DNA from: a virus
Virus record (IMG/VR): IMGVR_UViG_3300033144_004364
Coordinates: 1 to 42,934 of that record
Reading direction: 5' to 3' (one strand)
DNA: 42,934 bases
This document shows positions 362-21,487 of the stretch, one piece after another. A program made the translations under genes and the position numbers. Position 1 is the first letter of the stretch. Each line of letters begins with the position of its first letter. Below the pieces are notes generated by a model. That model was not told the origin of the DNA, ran no database searches, and was given only the letters and a program-made list of their open reading frames with translations.

Positions 362-553
362 ATGGAACGATTTATGAAGTTAGATGAAGTGATGAAGTGT
401 GTCAGTTTGTCAAAATCGGGCATTTACCGTGGTATGGCGGCTGGCACGTTTCCGTTGCAGATCAAGACAACAGATGCGGGATCGACTGTGCGGTGGGTTA
501 AGAGTGAGATTGACGAATGGATGGCGGGTCGGATTAATGCGTCGAGGGAATAG
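362..553 (+). CDS. AlpA-family helix-turn-helix DNA-binding protein
   Basis: The 63-residue product has the AlpA/excisionase layout: an N-terminal MKLDEVMKCVSLSKSGIYRG stretch that reads as a winged helix-turn-helix recognition unit (residues 5-24), then a basic turn, and a VRWVKSEIDEWM end typical of the family (residues 44-54). AlpA proteins act as small transcriptional activators or excisionases in phages and islands, so this one may control the downstream early genes or excision; that role is inference. A second ATG at position 374 is spaced better from a GGAA and would give a 59-residue protein that keeps the whole domain. The stop overlaps the start region of the next gene through the repeated junction described separately. 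Confidence 0.8.
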   Translation: MERFMKLDEVMKCVSLSKSGIYRGMAAGTFPLQIKTTDAGSTVRWVKSEIDEWMAGRINASRE

Positions 554-1465: not shown

Positions 1466-1712
1466 ATGGACTTGGATGAATTACCCGATTGGCTTTCCGC
1501 TTGAGGATCGTGATGATCTTGGCGGCGAGAGAACGGGTCCGAAATGCGCCCTTACCATGGAATACACGGATGATGATATTGTCAGCCTGAAACAACAGGT
1601 GATGATGAACGGTTTGCGAGAAGATATTCCCAATCTTGAAAAGTGGAAAGCAAAGTCTTTGATGCTTGGTTGGTTGAGCGATCAGTTTGGAGCGAAAAAA
1701 GATGAAACGTAG
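1452..1712 (+). CDS. Hypothetical acidic protein, 86 aa
   Basis: The start ATGATG follows GAAGGAGACAG, a strong ribosome site at ideal spacing, so start and frame are secure. The product has a Trp/Pro-rich N-terminus (MMSLKWTWMNYPIGFPLEDR) and two probable helices, DDDIVSLKQQVMMNGLRED and LEKWKAKSLMLGWLSDQFGA. No family is recognised. Its last codons overlap the start of the Tat-signal gene by 11 bases, so both are probably translated from one message. Confidence 0.65.
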   Translation: MMSLKWTWMNYPIGFPLEDRDDLGGERTGPKCALTMEYTDDDIVSLKQQVMMNGLREDIPNLEKWKAKSLMLGWLSDQFGAKKDET

Positions 1713-1974
1713 AGAATTTTTAAGACATTCAATCCATGCTGCCCTGGTGGTGGCTGTGCCGACTGCTTTGATTGTTTCACGTGGAACATCATCGGGTCAG
1801 TTGTGGACTGATGGCACGGGCGCGAACGTCACTTTATGGGGTGATGTTCATCCTCATAATGGCGATTATTACGCCTTTGTCCATCCCTCGAACATGAAGT
1901 CTTTTGGTTTGTTTACCGGCGAGATTGGTCATTACGAGGGTGTTCGATTTATTGAACAGGCGACATTATCATGA
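1702..1974 (+). CDS. Tat signal peptide fused to a major-capsid-protein fragment, 90 aa
   Basis: ATG 1702 is chosen because GGAG at 1689-1692 lies nine bases upstream; an upstream TTG would put five residues before the signal. Residues 1-27 form a twin-arginine signal (KRREFLR at 2-8, then a hydrophobic stretch AALVVAVPTALIV). Residues 54-87 match the C-terminal part of N4-gp56-type capsid proteins: GDYYAFVHP at 54-62 and GEIGHYEGVRFIEQ at 73-86. The capsid protein in this same window has GEIGRYEGCRFIEQ at residues 223-236, and the DNA agrees at 23 of 24 bases (1918-1941 against 9948-9971). It may be a degenerate capsid remnant that gained a signal, or an exported decoy-like protein; neither is shown. 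Confidence 0.75.
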   Translation: MKRREFLRHSIHAALVVAVPTALIVSRGTSSGQLWTDGTGANVTLWGDVHPHNGDYYAFVHPSNMKSFGLFTGEIGHYEGVRFIEQATLS

Positions 1975-4414: not shown

Positions 4415-5035
4415 ATGGACATAAAAGATTTGATTGATTGGGATTCGGCTGAAATGGCCCCCCACATCAGGGATAAGTTGGAAGCAGCCCTTGTTGATCC
4501 GAAACGTATTTCAAAGGGCATGACGCCAGCACAAGCCAAACGCGATGCCAACGCCGAGCCAGAAGGCGTGATCCAAAACCCGAATCACTTTGATAAAAGC
4601 TATCATGGCGCAACGATGTCGCTGGTCAAGGATATTGGCGATTACCTGATCCGGACTTATCCAGGGTGGGGATGGGTCATTCAGGTTAACGAATTCGGGC
4701 ATATGATTTACGTGACCGTTTCAGAACTTCACCCGACCATGGGTATGAAATTGAGAATGGAAGATGTAATCCACGATCCATCACTGCGGCATATCAAAGA
4801 GCAGGCTGGTCAATTGTTAGAGCGTTTTGATATGCTAAGGATGGGTTTACGGGGTGAGAATTTAAGTCGGTTGATTGACGCGCCCCGCGATGCTGTCGGT
4901 AACTGCATACCGCACATCGATGATTTGAAGGACAAAAAGGCCTCAACACAAGCCGCTGTCGCCAGAAAAATCGCTAAAGGAGATATCAAGATTTTCAAGG
5001 TGAACGGTCAAACAATGGTGAGGATTAAAAAATGA
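4415..5035 (+). CDS. Hypothetical protein upstream of portal, 206 aa
   Basis: The start follows AAAGGACACGC, an acceptable ribosome site directly after the terminator. The product is soluble and helical at both ends, with an aromatic middle segment (YPGWGWVIQVNEFGHMIYVT) that reads like a beta hairpin. The C-terminal part (ARKIAKGDIKIFKVNGQTMV) is basic. I do not recognise a family. Its place immediately before the portal, with an ATGA overlap, suggests a role in packaging or head assembly. No ATPase (Walker) or nuclease motif is visible, so it is not a terminase large subunit; a small-terminase or structural role cannot be excluded. Confidence 0.65.
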   Translation: MDIKDLIDWDSAEMAPHIRDKLEAALVDPKRISKGMTPAQAKRDANAEPEGVIQNPNHFDKSYHGATMSLVKDIGDYLIRTYPGWGWVIQVNEFGHMIYVTVSELHPTMGMKLRMEDVIHDPSLRHIKEQAGQLLERFDMLRMGLRGENLSRLIDAPRDAVGNCIPHIDDLKDKKASTQAAVARKIAKGDIKIFKVNGQTMVRIKK

Positions 5036-9281: not shown

Positions 9282-10274
9282 ATGGCTGGACAATTATGGC
9301 AAGTTGATGTCATTGGCGGGTTCATGTATTCAGATGAACTGTCAGACAAACTCCGTGTTGATGTCCTTCCCTCTGTTAAATTCCGTCAGCTATGTGATGC
9401 GCGGGATGCGATGGAGAAAGGTCTTAACAAGGGTGAACTGTATAACTGGAACGTGTATTCCAGGTTGCAGACCGGTGGTGGTACGCTTGACGAAAATCAA
9501 GAAATGCCTCAGACCAACTTCACGATCACTCAGAACTCTCTGGTTATCACGGAATACGGTAATTCCGTTCCGTACACTGGAAAACTGAATAACCTCTCCC
9601 GGCATCCTGTCGAAGAGATCATCAAAAAGGTGTTGAAGATTGACACCAAAGAAACCCTGGATGGCGCTGCACATGCGCAGTTTAACCTCACAGGCCGAAC
9701 CGTAACTGCCGAAGCTTCTGCTACAGTAGTGACGTTTGAAGAGGGCGGTTGCACCTTGACAAACAACATTGCCATGGGCAAAGAACACATCAAGCTGATC
9801 ATTGACGAAATGAAGGAATCCAATATTCCTCCGTACATGGCTGATGATTATTACGGTATCGGCTGGCCTACCACTTTCCGCAATTTCAAGAATGATCTTG
9901 AAGCCATTTCCTTCTACGTGGAAACCGGTTTTGGTCATATCATGAATGGCGAGATTGGTCGTTACGAGGGTTGCCGGTTCATCGAGCAAACGCACGTTGA
10001 GAAGGGTGGCGCGGTTGATTCAACCACGTGGAACTTCCGAACACGCGATTTGTGGAACAACGGCAAGTCTGACTGGTGTTTCTTCCTTGGCGAAGATACG
10101 GTTGCCGAGGCCATTGTTATTCCGGAAGAGATTCGAGGCCGAATCCCAACCGATTTTGGCCGGTCACGGGGTATCGCTTGGTACGCTCTTTTGGGTTACG
10201 GAATCGTACACCCAGGTAGCGTTGGCGATGCATTTATCAACAATCGCATCATCAAGTGGGAATCCGCAGTCTGA
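9282..10274 (+). CDS. Major capsid protein, N4-gp56/P22 coat type, 330 aa
   Basis: The product is the HK97-fold shell subunit. Recognised features are the N-terminal VLPSVKFRQLCDARDA, the QTNFTITQNSLVITEYGNSV-type E-loop/P-domain entry (about residues 80-100), KVLKIDTKETLDG, and the C-terminal GEIGRYEGCRFIEQ (residues 223-236), which is the hallmark of the N4-gp56 family. Length fits that family. Start follows CAGGAG at ideal spacing. It is separated from the next gene by a 91-base structured gap. A fragment of a related capsid gene, fused to a Tat signal, is present at 1702-1974. Confidence 0.92.
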   Translation: MAGQLWQVDVIGGFMYSDELSDKLRVDVLPSVKFRQLCDARDAMEKGLNKGELYNWNVYSRLQTGGGTLDENQEMPQTNFTITQNSLVITEYGNSVPYTGKLNNLSRHPVEEIIKKVLKIDTKETLDGAAHAQFNLTGRTVTAEASATVVTFEEGGCTLTNNIAMGKEHIKLIIDEMKESNIPPYMADDYYGIGWPTTFRNFKNDLEAISFYVETGFGHIMNGEIGRYEGCRFIEQTHVEKGGAVDSTTWNFRTRDLWNNGKSDWCFFLGEDTVAEAIVIPEEIRGRIPTDFGRSRGIAWYALLGYGIVHPGSVGDAFINNRIIKWESAV

Positions 10275-11631: not shown

Positions 11632-12378
11632 ATGGACACGTATTTGTCACTTGTCAACGACTTTGTTCGGGAGACAGCACTTAGCGGAGGTTCCGCATTA
11701 GATTCGGTAATCAACGCAACTGGCGATCAGGCCAAGGCTGCTTACTGGATCAAACAGGCGAACAACCAAATCCAAAGAGAATGGCTTAATTGGGATTTTC
11801 TTTGGGTTTCGACAACTCAGAATCTTACGCAGGACAGCACGATTGTTCCTCCCGAAACTGAAAAAATCCCGGTGATCCCCGGTCAACCTGATAAAATTTC
11901 AATCGGTATTATCAATTTCATCAAACGCAAGAGTTTGGCTGTTATTGCTGCAGATGGCGAGGCGCATTTTCCGGTCTTCATGGATTGGAATAATTCGGAC
12001 TTTGTAAGATTTTATACTTACGAAACGCAAGATCCTTCCAATTTCCCTGCTTGGTGGTCAATGCGACCTGATCGAACGATCCTTCTGTCCGAACCAATTG
12101 AGAGTTCTGATTTAACCTGCAGGTACGACTTTCACAGAAAGCCACGGCAGTTTTATGAAGACGCGGATATTCCATTGATACCGGAAGACTTCACTCGTTT
12201 GATTGTTGTGACTGCCAAGATTATGTATGCCGAACACGAAGATGCTCCGGAAGTTTCAGCGGGAGCGCATGAGGAATACGATTATCTTCTGAGTGAAATG
12301 GAAGCTGCACATTTGCCGGATCAAGGTTTCAACAGAGAATCACATTCCGATGCTGATTTGGTGGTTGTTCCAGAATGA
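11632..12378 (+). CDS. Head-tail adaptor protein, 248 aa
   Basis: The N-terminal part (YLSLVNDFVRETALSGGSAL, then GDQAKAAYWIKQANNQIQRE and WLNWDFLW at about residues 50-58) matches the general pattern of phage adaptor (gp4/gp13/SU10-type) proteins: an N-terminal helix, a short loop, a helix bearing NxxxxxIQxxWxxWxF, then a beta-rich domain. Such proteins bind below the portal and receive the nozzle. The C-terminal helix (EDFTRLIVVTAKIMYAEHED) is also typical. It is immediately upstream of the nozzle-like gene, with an ATGA overlap. Confidence 0.7.
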   Translation: MDTYLSLVNDFVRETALSGGSALDSVINATGDQAKAAYWIKQANNQIQREWLNWDFLWVSTTQNLTQDSTIVPPETEKIPVIPGQPDKISIGIINFIKRKSLAVIAADGEAHFPVFMDWNNSDFVRFYTYETQDPSNFPAWWSMRPDRTILLSEPIESSDLTCRYDFHRKPRQFYEDADIPLIPEDFTRLIVVTAKIMYAEHEDAPEVSAGAHEEYDYLLSEMEAAHLPDQGFNRESHSDADLVVVPE

Positions 12379-13712
12379 AGCGATCCGCAGCATATAAGCG
12401 AAACGCTTTCCGCAACCGTGCATCCAGAGTCATAACCAAAATAAAGGTTATTCTTTCGGGTGGCTTGAATCTGGTTCATTCTGCTTTGAAGATTAAGCCA
12501 GGGGAGTTGTTGGTCAGTAAAAACTATGAGCCTTATTTTGTTGATGGCGCATATCAGCGTGTCGGTGGTTTTGAGAGATACGATGGTCAGCCTCAACCGT
12601 CCAAGGCCGATTACTGGAAGGTGGCCTTTTCAGGGATTAACAATGGTCCTTTTCTGGTCAATTCTGTTATCACTGCTGCTACTGGTGAGGCCGGAATAGT
12701 CTCAAGATACGTCCTTACAGATGCAGAGGGCAATGGCTATTTCATTGTTACCGACTTAACTGATCAGGTTAATTCTGGTGTGATCTGGACACAGGGCAGC
12801 GCCACAGCACTTGCGACAACCGGATCAGACTTTGAGGGCGAAAAGGACGAAGACGAGCATGACATTTCACGCTTGTCGGCTGAAACGATCAGGCGCGATA
12901 TGATTGCGGCTGTTGGTGGCGCGTCCAGTAGTGGTGATGTGTTGGGCGTCAAGGTTTACAATGACAAGGTTTACGCTTTCCGAAATAATCTATCTGGCAG
13001 TCAAACGGACCTGTGGGTTAGTTCTGGATCAGGGTGGACGCAAGTGCCTTTGGGTTTCAAGGTTCGCTTTGTCCAGGGCGCAACGCAAATCGTTGAGGGT
13101 CAAACAATTACTGGTTCCGGTTCTGGTGCGAGCTGCATTGTTGGTCGTGTCGTTCTGAATGATGGCTACTGGAGTGGTGGCGATGCCGAGGGTTATATCG
13201 TTACCACAGCAATCACTTCCGGCCCTTTTTCTACCAGTGAGAATCTTCAAGTTTCGGCAGTAACAGTTGCGGTAAGCAACGCGACTACGGCCCAAGAGCC
13301 ACAATCCATTGCGCCTAACGGTGATTATCGTTTCAGGAACTATAATTTTGGTGGTCATTCCGGTACATTCCGGATGCACGGCGTTAATGGTGTTGATAAT
13401 GCCTTTGAGTTTGACGGTACGCTCTATGTGGCGATTGAAACGGGCATGACCGATGATACTCCTACGCATATTGGTGTCCACCGAGGACACTTGCTTCTGG
13501 CGTTTCGTGGTGGCTCTTTACAGAATTCAGGAAAGAATCAAGGTCTGTCATTTACACCAGTAACCGGTGCAGATGAAAAACTTGCTGGCGATGAAATTAC
13601 CGGATTCATTGAGGAGATTGGCGATGTCACCTTTGTCTTCACTCGTAACCAGACATATGACATATCGACTCGAAGGTTTTGTACAGGAAAATCTGGTCCT
13701 AAAACTGCATAA
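12375..13712 (+). CDS. Nozzle-like tail protein, N-terminal part (frameshifted), 445 aa
   Basis: This is the first part of a protein that should be about 707 residues. It begins with a basic arm and IKPGELLVSKNYEPYFVDGA-type sequence, typical of tubular tail/nozzle proteins that prolong the portal channel. Residues 95-150 and 235-290 look like two related beta modules inserted in the main fold. It runs in frame to codon 428 (FTRNQTY), after which the frame yields 17 unrelated residues and a stop at 13712. The rest of the protein continues in the +1 frame. The cause visible in the DNA is a tandem 7-bp duplication at 13652-13665. Either the gene is broken, or this sequence has an error, or the frame is corrected during translation. 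Confidence 0.75.
   Translation: MKRSAAYKRNAFRNRASRVITKIKVILSGGLNLVHSALKIKPGELLVSKNYEPYFVDGAYQRVGGFERYDGQPQPSKADYWKVAFSGINNGPFLVNSVITAATGEAGIVSRYVLTDAEGNGYFIVTDLTDQVNSGVIWTQGSATALATTGSDFEGEKDEDEHDISRLSAETIRRDMIAAVGGASSSGDVLGVKVYNDKVYAFRNNLSGSQTDLWVSSGSGWTQVPLGFKVRFVQGATQIVEGQTITGSGSGASCIVGRVVLNDGYWSGGDAEGYIVTTAITSGPFSTSENLQVSAVTVAVSNATTAQEPQSIAPNGDYRFRNYNFGGHSGTFRMHGVNGVDNAFEFDGTLYVAIETGMTDDTPTHIGVHRGHLLLAFRGGSLQNSGKNQGLSFTPVTGADEKLAGDEITGFIEEIGDVTFVFTRNQTYDISTRRFCTGKSGPKTA
13652..13665 (+). repeat. Tandem 7-bp duplication (GACATAT)x2 that shifts the frame
   Basis: Two adjacent copies, 13652-13658 and 13659-13665. Removing one copy joins NQTY to RLEGFVQENLVLKLH and restores a single frame from 12375 to 14505. 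Codons ACA-TAT occur in both copies in the two frames. Confidence 0.85.
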
Positions 13713-14505
13713 CTTTGAAACTGGCGCAATCAGTGACACGCTACAGCGGATTGGTCGCTCCATTTATCTTGATGATCGAGGTTTTTCCAAGTTACCTACC
13801 ACGGACGCCTTTGGTGATTTCGCGTCAAACCAAATCAGTTTGAAGATAGATCCTTTGATCCAGAACTTTCTTGCCAACGCAAGCATCCAGAAGTCGGTTG
13901 TGCATCGAGGCAAGAGCCTTTATCGGTGCTGGTTCTCGAACAATGAAGCGATTGTGATTGGCTTTTCCGGAAACAAGGTCAATGGGATCATGACCATTGA
14001 CTACGGTATGGATGTTACTGCTGCCACCAATGGTGACATTAACAGCTTGGAGAGGGTTTTTATTGGATCAAATGATGGTTTTGTCTATGAAACGGATATT
14101 GGTCGGAATTTTGATGGCGCAAAAATAGAGGCGTATATCGTCACAGCATATAATTTTGCCAACGATCCGGAAGTCAACAAGCGGTGGCGCGATATGGTCC
14201 TGTACATGGAGGGCGTTGGTCGTGCTTCTATCAGAGTTTCAGCCGATTATAACTACAATGAAACTCCGCAGAATTTTGAAACGATTATGGAGCGCGCCGT
14301 ATTCCTTGGCGGTGGTCGTTACGGCATATCACGGCATGGAGAATTCCTATATTCGGCAGCAAGCAAGACCGATATCAGGGTTTCAATGAATTCACATGCG
14401 CGTAATGTGAGTATGATCATGTATCACAATGAGGCGGCTGAACTGCCGCACATTCTTTACAGTATGCAATTCCATGTGAGCAAACGGAAAATCATCAGAT
14501 CATGA
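13657..14505 (+). CDS. Nozzle-like tail protein, C-terminal part, 282 aa
   Basis: This is the continuation of the nozzle-like protein in the +1 frame. The segment LKLHNFETGAISDTLQRIGR, followed by SIYLDDRGFSKL, is a signature of the central/C-terminal part of tubular tail proteins of podoviruses (the family pattern is TR-N-x-TY-x-L-x-G, then GA, then LDDRG). A possible separate start is ATG 13657, created by the duplication itself, but it has no ribosome site. The open frame extends further upstream to 13567 without family similarity. Without a frame repair, this part would be made poorly or not at all. The end overlaps the next gene (ATGA). Confidence 0.72.
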   Translation: MTYRLEGFVQENLVLKLHNFETGAISDTLQRIGRSIYLDDRGFSKLPTTDAFGDFASNQISLKIDPLIQNFLANASIQKSVVHRGKSLYRCWFSNNEAIVIGFSGNKVNGIMTIDYGMDVTAATNGDINSLERVFIGSNDGFVYETDIGRNFDGAKIEAYIVTAYNFANDPEVNKRWRDMVLYMEGVGRASIRVSADYNYNETPQNFETIMERAVFLGGGRYGISRHGEFLYSAASKTDIRVSMNSHARNVSMIMYHNEAAELPHILYSMQFHVSKRKIIRS

Positions 14506-15041
14506 CTGGCGCACTTGTACCTTACACAAACACGTATACCGACACGGATGGAACGATAGCCGATTCTGACGATATTGTTGCTGAATTTGATCGGGTTGCC
14601 GAATTTATCGGGGCATGGTCTGACAGTTTCGAGACTATCGGGGTCGTTGACGTACACGAATACACCGTACCGTTTGATGGGGATACTGATATCTCGCCAA
14701 CAACGGGTCTTGTGCAGGTAGTCAAGGTCGACGCTTCTGTAGTCACGGTAAACCTCAACATAAAGGCGAGGGTTGCCGGCGATCCTTATCGGATTTACCT
14801 GAATCTCCGCTTCGCCTCAAAAAATACAGTCTTTACAGTAAGCGCCCCAGGCGGTCAAAGTCATATCTTTGGTCTGAATCAGTCAATTTATTCGCCCTCA
14901 CAGGTGCAGATCGATGGATGGTATGCGGGATGCGTGATAGTTACCTATGGAACGGACGCTGCCCATATTCAGGTGTTTGCTGATAATCCCGAAGGAACAA
15001 TCGTTGCCTTGGACGATACTTTACAGTTGGTGGCCTCATGA
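14502..15041 (+). CDS. Tail fibre/virion-associated protein with N-terminal attachment module, 179 aa
   Basis: The N-terminus (YTNTYTDTDGTIADSDDIVA followed by EFDRVAEF) is a common virion-attachment type module in podovirus tail proteins: N-T/A-x6-G followed by EFDRVAxxF. A central beta module (SPTTGLVQVVKVDASVVTVN, about residues 66-86) has counterparts in the two following genes (DPAFGNMQLITVEG and DPANGQLQQITITQ), so the three are paralogous at least in layout. The rest is beta-rich. It starts at an ATGA overlap with the nozzle gene. Probably a small protein that binds the tail end and carries or adapts fibres. Confidence 0.6.
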   Translation: MTGALVPYTNTYTDTDGTIADSDDIVAEFDRVAEFIGAWSDSFETIGVVDVHEYTVPFDGDTDISPTTGLVQVVKVDASVVTVNLNIKARVAGDPYRIYLNLRFASKNTVFTVSAPGGQSHIFGLNQSIYSPSQVQIDGWYAGCVIVTYGTDAAHIQVFADNPEGTIVALDDTLQLVAS

Positions 15042-15562
15042 GTTGCAGGTATGTCAATACACTCAAAGCAGAGTTTGGTCGCAAGATAACTGCAGCGGAG
15101 GCGAACGATCAATTTATTGCCATTGAAGCAGCCATGGCCTGCCTTGAAGACTTGTCAGACAAAAGCGATACCAAGAACGAAGAGATTCATAATTATGGTC
15201 CGGTTAATGATGAAACGATTCTCGATCCGGCCTTTGGAAACATGCAGTTAATTACTGTTGAGGGGAATGTTGACATTTCCTTTCTTGCTCCTGAAAGTGA
15301 TGATCCAAAAATTGTCTATCTTCTGGTTTCCGATGGCGGCGAGGGTTCTTTTACAATGCCAAATGGAGCATCATGGGCGACTGATAGCAATGGACCGGGA
15401 ATCACCGGTATTCCGTGGAATTCTCAGGGCTTGGGCGGCGATTACGGCGCTCTTGTAGTCTGTATTCATGATGGAGTTGGCTGGCTTTACCTTGTGTTTG
15501 CAAGAAACGATATTGATTTCACAGCAATCGCCAACGTAACAGACCTCTACAATTGGAGATAG
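15038..15562 (+). CDS. Tail-associated protein, paralogue of flanking genes, 174 aa
   Basis: The product has the same layout as its neighbours: an N-terminal helix-forming module (NTLKAEFGRKITAAEANDQF), then DPAFGNMQLITVEGNVDISF (about residues 64-84), then a beta sandwich-like end with GWLYLVFARND, which corresponds to the AWLCVAFSRNE segment of the next gene. The shared beta module presumably forms a trimeric collar. The start overlaps the preceding stop (ATGA) and one base separates its stop from the next start. No catalytic motif is visible. Confidence 0.58.
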   Translation: MSCRYVNTLKAEFGRKITAAEANDQFIAIEAAMACLEDLSDKSDTKNEEIHNYGPVNDETILDPAFGNMQLITVEGNVDISFLAPESDDPKIVYLLVSDGGEGSFTMPNGASWATDSNGPGITGIPWNSQGLGGDYGALVVCIHDGVGWLYLVFARNDIDFTAIANVTDLYNWR

Positions 15563-15563
15563 G

Positions 15564-18008
15564 ATGCCGTTTTATACAAATGCTTATAAGGGTCGCGCAA
15601 ATCGCCAAGAAAGCGCAACGCATTTAAGTGATGAATTTGATCGCATTGCAGCGGCGTTTGTCGCGTTGCAGGATAGTAATACAGTTTTTATCGATATCTA
15701 TGATCACTTGGGCGGTACGAACTACGAAGTGATTGATCCCGCCAACGGTCAGTTACAGCAAATTACCATCACACAAGACACTCTGATTTCCGTCAGGGAA
15801 CCTGCGGCTGGATCGGACGCTACAAGCCACAGAATCACATTAATGGTTCATGGTGGCGGCTATCGGATTATCAACGGGTGGGGGCCGCAAACTTGGAAAG
15901 AAGAGGGATTAGTAGACTGGCTGTGGATTTATACAGGACTCGGGGAAAAAGCCAGTGCGGTGCTTGAGTTTTGTTTCGATGGCAAGGCTTGGTTGTGTGT
16001 TGCCTTTTCAAGAAACGAGAACTTCGGAAGTGATGCGGTCCCTGGTACTACGCAAGAGACTTTCCCGTTGATTTCCGGTCTTGTCAGCGAGAGTGGTTTG
16101 TCTACATTAACTTGGCACAGGGCGAGTTATGGTTTTGGCGCTGATGAAGATGGCTCTGAAATCTTATTGCCACAAGACCAAGCCAGATTTACTGGCGCAC
16201 GGTATGTCAGGAATTGGATCGCAACGCCCAAAGACCTTAAATCTGTTGCATGGAAGCCTGATGGCTGCACTGTAGGAACCGAAGCTGGCGGTGGGCAGGA
16301 TGGCGGCGATGTGGATAAAATTACTTTTGATATTACCCACGGAGAATTGCAACATTGGATGTTATTAAACTTTGCCAGAGGGTCAGAGTCAGCAAAGCCA
16401 ATTAAATTCGCCATTTCTTTTGACGCAAAAATGGCAGGAGTGGTTAGCACTGGTAATTGTCGCGCTGTTATAGCAATCATGGGTGTGGATACAGGATCGA
16501 CGGTACGGTGGGATCGGGTAGAGTTAGCCTTAACTGATAGTTGGCAGTCTTTTGGCGCAATTTTGGATCCAATTACAGGCAAAGACCCGAAAGGACTTCA
16601 TATTGCGGCTGCAGCGGGAACGCGAACATTAATTAAATTTGCAATTGAAAGTCCTTCAGATGGGCTTGGCAGTCCAATTCTTGTAGAGAATGTAAATGTA
16701 ACGGTTTTAAAGGATTTAGAGACCGATAAGGTGGCCTTGCCAATCGTTTCGACTATCGGGGCAAGCATAACCCTTGCGGCGACAGTCGGCAGCACTGGTG
16801 CGTGGGTGAACGGAACCAAGACAATGACCCTTTCCCTGCAGCAGTATGTTGATTTTCAAGACAGCCTTGTTGTTGGCAGGTCTTATCTGTGTGTTGCGAC
16901 CAGGGTATCTGGAAATTCCGCGAATGTGTTGATGGAAGATGATCGCATTTACTGGCAGGCCTATTCAAAGTCTGCCAGTGACACTTCTTTTGTCAAGGAC
17001 GCTGCATTTACTTTTCAATATGATGGTGGTGTTTTTAAATTTGTTCAGGGATCAGCGAATAGCGTCTATACGATCAACATTTATCTGGTGTCGAATGAAT
17101 TGTCGGTTTTCGGAACAGTAAACGCGAACACCATCGATGCTGGAAACCGAGTCACTTACATTGAGGGCGACAATATCCAGTCCAATCTTATTCAGGGTGT
17201 TGGCGCTGAAATCAATTACACCGGAGACAATCTTTTTGGCACTGATGCGCATAGAGATTTAAGTCTATGGGTTCCAAGCGTATCAGGAATGTTGGGCAAC
17301 AGGCACGAAATTGGTGTTGATGCGCGGCCTTGTCACGCTTCAATCATTCAGGACAGGAGAACCAGTGCCGCTGCGTATATTGAATACAACATCACGATTC
17401 CGGATGACTCAAAACGATATGTTATGTCGATGTTCCTTCGCAAGATATTTGACAAAGATACTGGCGCTATTATTCATCCGACTGAACAAGAGGGCGTGGT
17501 AACTCCACCTTCTCGATATATGGATGTGAGTATGAAACTTACCGGTGGTTCCAATCCTGTTGGCGGTCAACTTGTTCGTCGGGATGTTCGTACTGGCGCG
17601 GGAAATGCAGGATCGCATGATTATTACCGGTTAGGCAATACCGATTTTACTAATTGGTGGTCCTTGAATTTTGGTTTGCTCAATAATGGAACTGGCAATA
17701 CGAATGTCAGGATCAGGATATATCCAGCAGCGAATAATCTTGCAACATCTATTGGCTCTACTACGCCCTCTAAAACAGGGTATTGCATTGTTGACTGGTT
17801 CCAGCTTGAAGAGGCCGAGGCGAGCAATGGTTTGCCCACTTCAATCGCAATCCCCGGAATTATCCGGCAGGTCGATTCTGTAACTACTGCCCTGACAGAC
17901 GGTATTTTATATGACGCAGTGCCGACCGAGATTGGCGATGTTACTGCAGGTGCATGGACTTTTGACTTTAGCAACATCTGGAAGTTTTTAACCTGGATTA
18001 AATCATAA
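15564..18008 (+). CDS. Large tail fibre/spike with carbohydrate-binding-like domains, 814 aa
   Basis: Residues 1-35 carry the attachment-type module (LSDEFDRIAAAFVALQDSN), and residues about 50-155 the shared beta module ending AWLCVAFSRNE. Beyond it are probably two or three jelly-roll domains of the lectin/CBM type: one around 210-385 (RNWIATPKDLKSVAWKPDGC through PILVENVNVTV), another around 395-510, and a third around 555-765 (from NLFGTDAHRDLSLWVPS to YCIVDWFQLEEAEA), the last with a WFQLEE end typical of such modules. These resemble domains that bind sugars, so this is a candidate receptor-binding protein. No lyase or hydrolase motif is apparent. GGAG precedes the start. Confidence 0.65.
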   Translation: MPFYTNAYKGRANRQESATHLSDEFDRIAAAFVALQDSNTVFIDIYDHLGGTNYEVIDPANGQLQQITITQDTLISVREPAAGSDATSHRITLMVHGGGYRIINGWGPQTWKEEGLVDWLWIYTGLGEKASAVLEFCFDGKAWLCVAFSRNENFGSDAVPGTTQETFPLISGLVSESGLSTLTWHRASYGFGADEDGSEILLPQDQARFTGARYVRNWIATPKDLKSVAWKPDGCTVGTEAGGGQDGGDVDKITFDITHGELQHWMLLNFARGSESAKPIKFAISFDAKMAGVVSTGNCRAVIAIMGVDTGSTVRWDRVELALTDSWQSFGAILDPITGKDPKGLHIAAAAGTRTLIKFAIESPSDGLGSPILVENVNVTVLKDLETDKVALPIVSTIGASITLAATVGSTGAWVNGTKTMTLSLQQYVDFQDSLVVGRSYLCVATRVSGNSANVLMEDDRIYWQAYSKSASDTSFVKDAAFTFQYDGGVFKFVQGSANSVYTINIYLVSNELSVFGTVNANTIDAGNRVTYIEGDNIQSNLIQGVGAEINYTGDNLFGTDAHRDLSLWVPSVSGMLGNRHEIGVDARPCHASIIQDRRTSAAAYIEYNITIPDDSKRYVMSMFLRKIFDKDTGAIIHPTEQEGVVTPPSRYMDVSMKLTGGSNPVGGQLVRRDVRTGAGNAGSHDYYRLGNTDFTNWWSLNFGLLNNGTGNTNVRIRIYPAANNLATSIGSTTPSKTGYCIVDWFQLEEAEASNGLPTSIAIPGIIRQVDSVTTALTDGILYDAVPTEIGDVTAGAWTFDFSNIWKFLTWIKS

Positions 18009-19807
18009 TGGCTATCGATATCAAAACAACAAACCTACATGAGTTCGGGCCTCAAAATCTTGTATGTGCCGGAACTGTTGATGACCAAAGCAATGACCCG
18101 TTATTGGATGAAAGTGGAAATCCTTTATGCGAGGAAGGGATAGCCGATGTGTTGCCTTTTGAATTCACCATAAGTGGTTCGTCTTTTGCAATTGGACTAG
18201 AGGCATCGGCGGGTGGGGCCGGTCCTGCTTTGGTGTATAACTTCACTGTTGATTGGGGCGATGGCAATACTGATGATATTACAGCTTGGGATGATGCAGC
18301 TTTGTCTCATGGGTATTCAGGATCGCAAACATGGGTGATACAAATAAGTGGGATATGCCCGAACTTAAGTCTTGGTTTGTCCGGTCCAGAGAGCGGTGAC
18401 AGGTCTAAAGTAACTTCTATTACCAGATGGGGATCGGTCGTATTCACCTATCTAAATAATGCTTTTAATGACTGCTTCAACATGACCATTACCGCGCCGG
18501 ATAATCCGGATTTTTCCTCTGTTACAGATATTCGATGGTGCTTTAAAGAGTGTCGGTCAATTGTTACTGGACCTGAAGGTTGGAACTTTTCAACCATGCA
18601 AACAACCTCGATGCGCTATTTATTTGATCATTGTGACAATATCAATTTTGATGCTTCTGGCTGGAATCTAACTGGTATTACTGATATGGAGGGTGTGTTT
18701 AATTTCTGCGTGAAATTCAATAGCAGCATTGCAGGATGGGATACCTCTGCAGTTACCGATATGTCGTTCTTATTCTTCTTCTGCGATATCTTTAATCACG
18801 CAAGTATCGTGGACCTCGACACCAGTGCGGTGCAGAATTTTGAGAAAATGCTTTCGTTTGCACAGGCGTTAAACCAACCGATAGGTGTTTGGGATACAAG
18901 CAGTGGAACCAACATGGATTCAATGTTCCGCAGTTGTGATGATTTCAACCAGTCAATTGATGCCTGGAATGTCAGTGGTGTAACTACCATGAAAGCAATG
19001 TTTCAAGATTGCTTCGCTTATAACCAGTCAATGAATTCATGGATTACTACTGCTTGTTTGGATATGTCTTATATGTTCGATGCGAGTTTTGGAATTGCTT
19101 GGGCCGTATTTACGGGGAATGTCGCGGCCTGGGATACATCAAACGTAACCACCATGGAAGGCATGTTCAGGCATCAGAATCTTTTCAACATCGACATTGG
19201 CGGGTGGAATGTTTCGTCCGTTACTTCTTTCTTTGTTTTTATGTTTGAGTGCGAGGCGTTTAATCAAAATCTCAATTCATGGACGCCATTATCTGCATTA
19301 ACCATGGAATCAATGTTTCAAGAGTGTGCAGCATTTAATGGGAATGTTACAAGCTGGAATGTTGGTTCTGTCACCAATATGCAGTCAATATTTCATAGGT
19401 GCGATATATTTGATCAAGATATAAGTGGTTGGAATATGGCGGCTGTTACTGATTTTAGGGGCATGTTTCAGGATTGCTTTGCATTTAATCAGCCAATCGG
19501 CACATGGACAACAACCGCAGGGCTGTTTATGGATTCAATGTTTCGAGGCGCGTCTGCGTTTAACCAAGATATTTCTGGTTGGAATATTTCTGCGGTTGGA
19601 GACTTCTTTAATTTCATGCTCGGAGCAACTTCTTTCAGCACGGCAAATTATGATCTGCTTCTTAATGCGTGGTCACTACTTTCTGTCAGTACCGGAGAAG
19701 ACCCAACATTCGTGCCTTCATACACAATCGCAACATCACAAGCGGCGAGGGATATACTCACTGACCCACCTAACAGTTGGACGATCACCGATGGTGGCGG
19801 GATTTAA
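18008..19807 (+). CDS. Tail protein with DUF285/BspA-type repeats, 599 aa
   Basis: Residues about 70-115 hold a WGDGNTDDITAWDDAALSHGY segment, usual at the front of this repeat family. Then about fifteen repeats of 24-27 residues follow (about 150-560) of the form MFxDCxxFNQxIxxWxxSxVTxM; examples are MFQDCFAYNQSMNSW and MFRGASAFNQDISGWNISAV. The block ends in FSTANYDLLLNAWS, the usual cap, and the C-terminus WTITDGGGI. This is the Pfam DUF285 / TIGR02167 surface-repeat type known from bacterial surface proteins and Mycoplasma lipoproteins. Here it starts at a TAATG overlap after a fibre gene, so it is most likely a virion surface or receptor-contact protein. It has no signal peptide. Confidence 0.8.
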   Translation: MAIDIKTTNLHEFGPQNLVCAGTVDDQSNDPLLDESGNPLCEEGIADVLPFEFTISGSSFAIGLEASAGGAGPALVYNFTVDWGDGNTDDITAWDDAALSHGYSGSQTWVIQISGICPNLSLGLSGPESGDRSKVTSITRWGSVVFTYLNNAFNDCFNMTITAPDNPDFSSVTDIRWCFKECRSIVTGPEGWNFSTMQTTSMRYLFDHCDNINFDASGWNLTGITDMEGVFNFCVKFNSSIAGWDTSAVTDMSFLFFFCDIFNHASIVDLDTSAVQNFEKMLSFAQALNQPIGVWDTSSGTNMDSMFRSCDDFNQSIDAWNVSGVTTMKAMFQDCFAYNQSMNSWITTACLDMSYMFDASFGIAWAVFTGNVAAWDTSNVTTMEGMFRHQNLFNIDIGGWNVSSVTSFFVFMFECEAFNQNLNSWTPLSALTMESMFQECAAFNGNVTSWNVGSVTNMQSIFHRCDIFDQDISGWNMAAVTDFRGMFQDCFAFNQPIGTWTTTAGLFMDSMFRGASAFNQDISGWNISAVGDFFNFMLGATSFSTANYDLLLNAWSLLSVSTGEDPTFVPSYTIATSQAARDILTDPPNSWTITDGGGI

Positions 19808-19821
19808 CAGGAGATTTAAAA

Positions 19822-20601
19822 ATGGCTAGAATACCTTTGTATGCAACCGTGGTGACTCTCAATGAGGGTATGTTCATATATACCGCTATTGATACGAACA
19901 CCGATGGCAATTACGAATCGAGAAACTTCACCCTTGGCACATTGCGGCTTGCGTTGTATGACACAAATTCTGTCATGTTCAGGGGATCAAAGGGCGTCAA
20001 TATTGCTTCTGCAACCGCCCTGCCCATTGGTCTTGATGGTAATTTCTTTAATATCACTGGCACGACTGCAATCACCAGCTTTTCTGATGTCAAGGTAGGC
20101 ACAGAAATCGTATTGGAGTTTGATGCTGTTCTGACATTGACACACCATGCAACCGACCTGATCCTTCCCGGTGGTCTTAATATCGTTACCGCAGCCGGAG
20201 ACAAGGCAGGGTTCATTCAGTACGCTACTGATGATTGGAAATGCTTGTATTACACTCGCGCCGCAGTAAGACCTTCTGTTGCCGGCTCTGTCTTTCCCGT
20301 TTATATGGATGCTGTTCCGCAGGCGTTATCAGGCCCAGGTGCGGTTGATATTCTTTCGCCGGTTACAAATTTCACATCAGCAGGAGCCACGGATGCACTT
20401 ACTTTGGTTGATTCAACTCTTCTCGGGCAAATCAAGGTTCTCAATCATGAAGTTGATGCTGGTGGATATATTCTTACACCTGTTACTCTTTCTGGTGGTA
20501 CTACGATTACTGTCACAGATGTCGGCGTGAGCATCACGCTTATGTGGACCGTTTCTGGTTGGCGTCTTGTTGGTCAGACAGGAGTAGCTGTCATTGCCTA
20601 A
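19822..20601 (+). CDS. Tail fibre-associated protein with shared C-terminal module, 259 aa
   Basis: ATG 19822 follows AGGAG with suitable spacing. The N-terminal half is a beta-rich domain (TLGTLRLALYDTNSVMFRGS onward). The C-terminal half (about residues 165-255) is a recurring module: VPQALSGPGAVDILSPVTNF, then LTLVDSTLLGQIKVLNHEVD and a WRLVG end. The same module is found at 25831-26325 (LPQSLSGPGAIGVTQHSSN, LKMVTHVVDGG), and a similar one is known from other phage fibre proteins. It presumably forms a trimeric beta-stack at the fibre tip or a base for fibres. No enzymatic motif seen. Confidence 0.6.
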   Translation: MARIPLYATVVTLNEGMFIYTAIDTNTDGNYESRNFTLGTLRLALYDTNSVMFRGSKGVNIASATALPIGLDGNFFNITGTTAITSFSDVKVGTEIVLEFDAVLTLTHHATDLILPGGLNIVTAAGDKAGFIQYATDDWKCLYYTRAAVRPSVAGSVFPVYMDAVPQALSGPGAVDILSPVTNFTSAGATDALTLVDSTLLGQIKVLNHEVDAGGYILTPVTLSGGTTITVTDVGVSITLMWTVSGWRLVGQTGVAVIA

Positions 20602-21487
20602 AAAAGAATATATACGCAGGGTTTCAACCTTACTGTTCACTGGAAAGGCCAGTGACTTCGGTGCGTTTTCGCGTGTCCTTCTCGCGCATAGAAATCTTGT
20701 CAACCACCAGATAACCATATCGTCAAGTGGCGTACTGGCGGCAGGTGTTTATGCGCTCCGGATCGTTCCCGAAGAGGATGATACGCTTGAGTCTTCCGTG
20801 GATACTGGCGAGATACTTGATATTGCTGGTAATGATTCGGCTATAGCCATATTTTCGGGAGTCCTTCGAGGGATTCACCTTGAAGTCTTAACGCCTTTGT
20901 CTGGTGGCGAAACGATCAGCGTGGTCTTGTCTTCGTACACCAAGGTTGCGCCACAGCCGACCGACCTTGATTCGCGCACTTATCTATCAACTCAGATCCT
21001 CGACAGTGTGCCAAGCGACCATGGCTCATTCTCTGCCTTGCCGCTTCAACACAGGGATATGTTCTATCACCAGTTGTCCTTGGCCTGCAGTGGTGTGCTT
21101 GCGGCTGGAATTTATAATGTGCGGATTATTCCGGATGTAGAGGAGGTTTTGGAATCGTCAGTCGCTATTGGAAAAGAGCTTGATATTGCCGGAGTCAATT
21201 CTGCCTTGGTGCAGTTTACCGGTGTATTGAAGGGCATCCACCTTGAAGCAACAACACCCTTATCAGCGGGGCAAGCAATCAGTGTGGTTCTTTCGTCCTC
21301 AACAGAACGATATGATGGCGTAATAGCAGATGCGATAGCGGCCTCACCGAGCGGTCATGTGCATGTTGAGGCAGATATCACTGATTTGGACAAGTTCACC
21401 CAGGCGCAAGTGAACGCACTCATTGATGCTCATGCCGCAGACCCAAACACACATACAAATTTAATTGTTAATGCCGGATTTTTTTAG
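20594..21487 (+). CDS. Fibre-region protein with two tandem repeats, 297 aa, TTG start
   Basis: TTG 20594 overlaps the previous stop and has AGGAG about ten bases upstream. The body is two repeats of about 105 residues (approximately 10-115 and 122-230): AYALRI or YNVRIIP after SSGVLAAG and CSGVLAAG, then ESSVDTGEILDIAGND and ESSVAIGKELDIAGVN, FSGVLRGIHLEVLTPLSGG and FTGVLKGIHLEATTPLSAG. A C-terminal segment, SGHVHVEADITDLDKFTQAQ, is like the connector or chaperone-binding ends of tail fibres. The internal duplication suggests a two-domain beta-sandwich shaft. Confidence 0.6.
   Translation: MPKKEYIRRVSTLLFTGKASDFGAFSRVLLAHRNLVNHQITISSSGVLAAGVYALRIVPEEDDTLESSVDTGEILDIAGNDSAIAIFSGVLRGIHLEVLTPLSGGETISVVLSSYTKVAPQPTDLDSRTYLSTQILDSVPSDHGSFSALPLQHRDMFYHQLSLACSGVLAAGIYNVRIIPDVEEVLESSVAIGKELDIAGVNSALVQFTGVLKGIHLEATTPLSAGQAISVVLSSSTERYDGVIADAIAASPSGHVHVEADITDLDKFTQAQVNALIDAHAADPNTHTNLIVNAGFF

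What the first reader, a model, noticed from the sequence alone, without database searches (positions are those of the whole stretch)
12375..14505. Nozzle-like tail gene split by a 7-bp tandem duplication
Seen: GACATAT is duplicated at 13652-13665. Taking out one copy joins FTRNQTY to RLEGFVQENLVLKLH and gives one 707-residue frame; as written, the first part ends at 13712 and the second lacks a good start. Known: NQTYxLxG then LHxxETGA and LDDRG is a contiguous pattern in nozzle proteins. Inference: (1) slipped-strand mutation or assembly error, (2) reversible phase variation of an essential tail protein, or (3) a ribosome hop, since take-off and landing codons (TAT 13656 and 13663) are identical and the hop of 7 nt would give the right protein.
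Basis: partly seen in the sequence, partly recalled or inferred. Interest (0 to 1): 0.72.

Follow-up and report, generated by a model that had tools for sequence, protein, structure and literature searches.

The report
Phage tail gene with accidental frame break
In one environmental phage sequence the gene for a tail "nozzle" protein is interrupted by an extra copy of seven bases; every relative checked has the gene uninterrupted, so this looks like a chance mutation or an assembly error, not a device.

Summary
GACATAT occurs twice in a row at 13652-13665, and the frame of a tail nozzle gene changes there. The closest relative (L002) has one intact 707-residue gene. Its residues 1-428 match the frame starting at 12375, and the rest match the frame ending at 14505. 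By fold, the relative's protein is a nozzle protein; top Foldseek matches include SU10 nozzle, T7 gp12 and P22 gp10.

Exact 7-base tandems are themselves at chance level (3 in the window, about 2.2 expected). What matters is the exact break against homologues.

Of 105 related viral contigs, 103 reach the homologous point and 103 of 103 are open across it. The 24 other window genes with a homologue lie in one frame. Both halves have diverged no faster than in intact relatives. No RNA structure stands out.

Best reading: a recent, private accident, either a real frame-breaking duplication or an assembly error; reads would decide. A ribosome hop or phase switch has no support. A working split protein is still unlikely.

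The parts
12375..13712 (+). First frame: N-terminal 428 residues of the nozzle protein, then 17 residues out of frame (DISTRRFCTGKSGPKTA), 445 aa in all
13652..13658 (+). First copy of GACATAT
   Evidence: the copy called 'extra' is arbitrary
13659..13665 (+). Second copy of GACATAT
   Evidence: relatives lack seven bases here (alignments and the junction lines)
13564..14505 (+). Second frame, open from the stop at 13561-13563; residues homologous to the C-terminal 279 residues of the nozzle protein run from 13666
13612..13616 (+). AGGAG, Shine-Dalgarno-like, seven bases before ATG 13624; lies inside codons for the conserved EE(I/V)GD stretch, so probably fortuitous
   Evidence: conservation of the residues
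13624..14505 (+). Possible 293-aa product from ATG 13624 in the second frame
   Evidence: expression not shown
13657..14505 (+). Possible 282-aa product from ATG 13657, a start made by the joint of the two copies; no Shine-Dalgarno match beyond 3 bases
   Evidence: expression not shown
11632..12378 (+). Adaptor gene directly upstream (SU10_adaptor, 25.8 bits against a cut-off of 27; PHROG tail protein)

Best explanation
An ordinary nozzle gene of a short-tailed-type phage carries, in this one record, a recent tandem duplication of seven bases that breaks the frame inside the beta-propeller. It is an accident and not a programmed element: either a real slippage-type duplication in the sequenced genome (which would cut the protein to 445 residues, with perhaps a separate C-terminal piece) or an error of assembly (for instance two pieces with a 7-base overlap laid end to end). 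Shown: the duplication, the frame break, the intact state in relatives, the isolation of the lesion. Inferred: its recency and its accidental nature. My split is about 0.5 assembly error, 0.4 real mutation.
For: L002 has the intact 707-aa gene and aligns in two frames to the window. 24 of 24 unique contigs that reach the point (26 found; L029 and L033 do not reach it) are open across it; 80 of 80 more loci are open too, of which 79 are new contigs. Four cultured or complete phage records opened (Vibrio phage D279, MW202426, Bas95, vB_Pun_Y3) each have one CDS there. The other 24 window genes with homologues lie in one frame, so the break is isolated. dN of window against L002 and L005 is 0.267 and 0.258 in the N part (L002-L005: 0.252) and 0.153 and 0.167 in the C part (L002-L005: 0.172), so no sign of long decay. 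A study of frame transitions expects lone, BLASTp-validated frame breaks to be sequencing errors rather than genuine indels (PMC3711429, passages read).
Against: No second copy of this virus was found, so it is not shown that its own population has the uninterrupted gene. Short-read errors rarely make an exact 7-base copy (recalled), which favours real DNA over a base-calling error. dS is saturated, so 'recent' rests on dN alone.
Confidence: 0.91

Rival explanations
1. The nozzle is made as two polypeptides: 445 aa from 12375 and 293 aa from ATG 13624 (or 282 aa from ATG 13657), which assemble together.
For: ATG 13624 has AGGAG at seven bases, as strong as many gene starts of this window (5-base match; 12 of the 26 gene starts scored have a match of 5 or more). 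The C part shows no relaxed constraint. Another group (L010-L020) has the N-terminal region in a gene of its own (175 aa, then a 203-aa gene, then 637 aa; read in full for L013).
Against: The cut at residue 428 of the relative's model falls in a strand (427-431) in the part that aligns with beta-propellers, not at a domain border; the natural split in L010-L020 is elsewhere, between residues 86 and about 172. The AGGAG lies in codons of conserved residues, so it can be chance. No relative has a split at this point.
Confidence: 0.04
2. Leaky ribosomal frameshifting (+1) within the 13567-13712 overlap rescues some full-length product.
For: TTT_T at 13677 and AAA_A at 13701 allow exact +1 re-pairing in the overlap.
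Against: Such sites are not special: 5 of 428 codons of the N part also allow exact +1 re-pairing. No fold beyond shuffles (z 0.10 and 0.76). No relative needs it.
Confidence: 0.03
3. Reversible phase variation of the tail by gain and loss of the 7-base copy.
For: A tandem copy can be lost by slippage.
Against: Only two copies; no relative of 103 has any copy-number variant that breaks the frame here; switching off a core tail protein would stop virion assembly, so there is no evident benefit (inference).
Confidence: 0.015
4. Programmed ribosome bypassing from TAT 13656 to TAT 13663, as in T4 gene 60.
For: Matched codons and an outcome that would give the relatives' protein.
Against: Matched codons are automatic in a duplication. 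Gene 60 has a stop codon in the A site at take-off and a take-off stem-loop (PMC5009743, passages read); here the next codon is GAC and the fold is at shuffle level. No relative has the element.
Confidence: 0.005

Closest known systems
Nozzle proteins of short-tailed phages (SU10 gp17, T7 gp12, Pa223, P22 gp10 tail hub)
   Same: The intact relative's model gives these as its best Foldseek matches (7z4b E 6e-17; 9nwi, 9jyz, 8eap) and aligns over most of its length (9nwi Z 23.1, rmsd 3.5, 441 residues); same position after portal, capsid and adaptor genes.
   Different: No detectable sequence match to solved chains; in the window the frame is broken.
Lone frame-broken genes in databases (sequencing error or recent indel)
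   Same: Single genome, homologues intact, no conserved signal (PMC3711429, passages).
   Different: The lesion is an exact 7-base tandem copy, not a homopolymer indel.
T4 gene 60 translational bypassing
   Same: Matched codons on either side of the skipped bases.
   Different: No stop at take-off, no stem-loop above shuffles, no conservation.

Membership tests
Short-tailed phage nozzle protein | Beta-propeller core with platform and nozzle parts, fold like SU10 gp17 or T7 gp12 | tested here: met
   Model of the relative L002 (77% identical to the window's C part, 69% to the N part), mean pLDDT 74.5, pTM 0.79; 25 of the first 25 Foldseek rows are phage tail, virion or portal-tail entries. The window's own protein was not folded.
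Short-tailed phage nozzle protein | Gene order portal, capsid, adaptor, nozzle | tested here: met
   SU10_portal above cut-off at 5032; major head protein PHROG at 9282; SU10_adaptor just under cut-off at 11632
Short-tailed phage nozzle protein | One uninterrupted gene | tested here: not met
   Two frames in the window; met in 103 of 103 relatives across this point
Programmed ribosomal bypass | Stop or unused codon after the take-off codon | tested here: not met
   Next codon GAC, 23.5 per 1000 in 26 window genes
Programmed ribosomal bypass | Take-off stem-loop | tested here: not met
   z 0.10 and 0.76 against 200 shuffles
Programmed ribosomal bypass | Full-length product made | not testable with these tools
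   needs proteomics or reporters
Slipped-strand phase variation | Repeat tract varying in copy number among relatives | tested here: not met
   All 103 contigs that reach the site are in frame there; within-population variation not testable

The most novel reading that the evidence does not exclude
The duplication has split a core tail protein into two separately started polypeptides (start at ATG 13624 with its own ribosome-binding site, or at the ATG made by the duplication), which still assemble into a working nozzle: a gene fission caught at its first step.
Probability: 0.04. Interest if true: 0.55.

Novelty: already known. Interest (0 to 1): 0.1.

Why it matters
Mainly as a caution: a one-record frame break in an essential phage gene, with identical codons on both sides, is easily mistaken for a ribosome hop. 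If it were a working split nozzle it would show gene fission in a core virion protein in progress, but nothing here shows that.

Tried and rejected
Null for the repeat: the tool's expectation of 0 was set aside for the count of all exact 7-base tandems (3 against 2.24). Chimera of two different phages at the joint: both flanks are equally distant from the same two relatives (protein identity 69% and 77% to L002, 70% and 77% to L005), and G+C of the parts is 0.483 and 0.452, so no sign of it. Low-quality record: rejected, as no other gene with a homologue is broken (some queries and two also hit a second frame because the genes at 15038 and 15564 are similar to each other, or because they are antisense frames). 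A same-species second copy: not found by DNA patterns (0 matches each) or by blastn in phages; the tools warn that very near records may be left out. Genome contigs: 595 pattern stretches, none a relative. First model with 6 rows was poor (pLDDT 40.5) and was not used. Sequence search of solved chains found nothing convincing. Papers: search listings only; passages read of PMC9509320, PMC3711429 and PMC5009743. No paper on 7-base tandem errors in viral metagenomes was found; that is no claim that none exists.

Caveats on counts: the best 80 of 176 confirmed loci were kept, and ranking by match score might disfavour broken genes. Of the 54 phage records, four were opened. Structure statements concern the relative L002, not the window's protein.

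Full report
What is there. The window is a virus record of 42,934 bases. Around the finding lie a portal gene (SU10_portal, above cut-off), a major head protein gene, an adaptor gene and then the gene in question. GACATAT stands twice in a row at 13652-13665. Read from ATG 12375 the frame ends at 13712 after 445 residues; the rest of the gene lies in another frame, open from 13564 to 14505.

What it should look like. The nearest relative, L002 (IMG/VR 3300033429_000022), has one open gene of 707 residues between the same neighbours. Its residues 1-430 match the window at 12375-13664 (69%), and residues 415-706 match at 13624-14499 (77%) in the other frame (alignment). The two matches meet at residue 428, the end of the TRNQTY motif, which is where the second copy begins.

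Is the repeat more than chance? By itself no: three exact 7-base tandems occur in the window and 2.24 are expected (sd 1.45, 50 first-order Markov sequences). The match between the size of the insert, its sequence and the point of the frame break is what makes the duplication convincing.

Is it shared? Searches gave 26 different contigs; 24 reach the point and all 24 are open across it, while L029 and L033 stop short. One search kept 80 of 176 further loci; 80 of 80 are open across it, and one of them is a contig already counted. That makes 103 of 103, with 105 contigs found in all. Among 54 phage records with a match, the four opened each show one CDS. So the break is private to this record.

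Is the gene decaying? dN between window and L002 or L005 is 0.267 and 0.258 in the N part, where L002 against L005 gives 0.252; in the C part it is 0.153 and 0.167 against 0.172. dS is saturated. Neither part shows extra change. Either the break is recent, or it is not in the virus at all. The other 24 window genes with homologues in five contigs are each in one frame, so the record is otherwise sound. Both flanks look equally related to the same two relatives, so a join of two unlike phages is not indicated.

What the protein is. No Pfam family matches; PHROG 5107, labelled amidase, matches weakly. The model of L002 from 16 sequences (pLDDT 74.5, pTM 0.79) finds SU10 nozzle, Pa223 tail, T7 gp12 and P22 gp10 as best Foldseek hits, and VIA-align gives Z 23.1 over 441 residues to Pa223 (rmsd 3.5), although many unrelated propellers score about 21, so the family call rests on the coverage and on Foldseek's ranking. 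[quoted passage not shown] A cut there is unlikely to be harmless (inference).

Could it work as it stands? A hop: the identical TAT codons are a necessary result of any tandem copy and carry no weight. Known bypassing in T4 gene 60 has a stop codon in the A site and a take-off stem-loop (PMC5009743, passages); here the next codon is GAC, and folds of the 101 bases up to the first stop and of the 101 bases from the repeat are at shuffle level. A +1 slip: exact re-pairing sites exist at 13677 and 13701, but 5 of 428 codons of the N part have the same property. Two polypeptides: this is the reading that survives best among the functional ones. But the AGGAG lies in codons of a conserved EE(I/V)GD stretch, and no relative is split here. 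A different natural split exists in L010-L020, nearer the N-terminus.

Verdict. A private frame break in an ordinary nozzle gene, by real duplication (about 0.4) or assembly error (about 0.5). The published expectation for lone frame breaks with intact homologues is sequencing error over genuine indel (PMC3711429). An excisionase-like gene near the left end leaves open that the contig is a provirus, in which a dead tail gene would be no surprise. Reads over 13600-13720 would settle it.

Noticed in passing
L010-L020, for example L013:3761-6812: In a related group the nozzle region is arranged differently: its N-terminal part is a gene of its own (175 aa in L013), followed by a 203-aa gene and then the remaining 637 aa. 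The N-terminal match lies apart from the rest in all 11 contigs.
   Followed up: partly
window 362-553: AlpA/excisionase-type regulator (Pfam PF05930, PHROG 66) near the left end, in a stretch without structural genes; the contig may be a temperate phage or provirus edge.
   Followed up: partly
window 1687-1974: Small frame with a twin-arginine-like start (recalled) whose end resembles a short piece of the major head protein at 9282 (17 of 48 identical, GEIG.YEG.RFIEQ).
   Followed up: partly
PHROG 5107; Vibrio phage D279 CAL9968067.1: The nozzle-type gene is labelled 'amidase' in PHROGs and in Vibrio phage records, while the fold of the relative says tail nozzle; the label looks wrong for this group.
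   Followed up: partly
window 15038-15562 and 15564-18008: Two neighbouring genes are similar to each other over about 150 residues (28-29% through relatives), as if one were a shortened copy of the other's N-terminus.
   Followed up: no
window 18008-19807: A 599-aa gene made of DUF285 (BspA-like repeat, recalled) stretches, 321 bits, in a phage tail region.
   Followed up: no
window 20594-21487: Internal duplication: one relative's 120-aa frame matches both 20618-20941 and 20978-21304.
   Followed up: no
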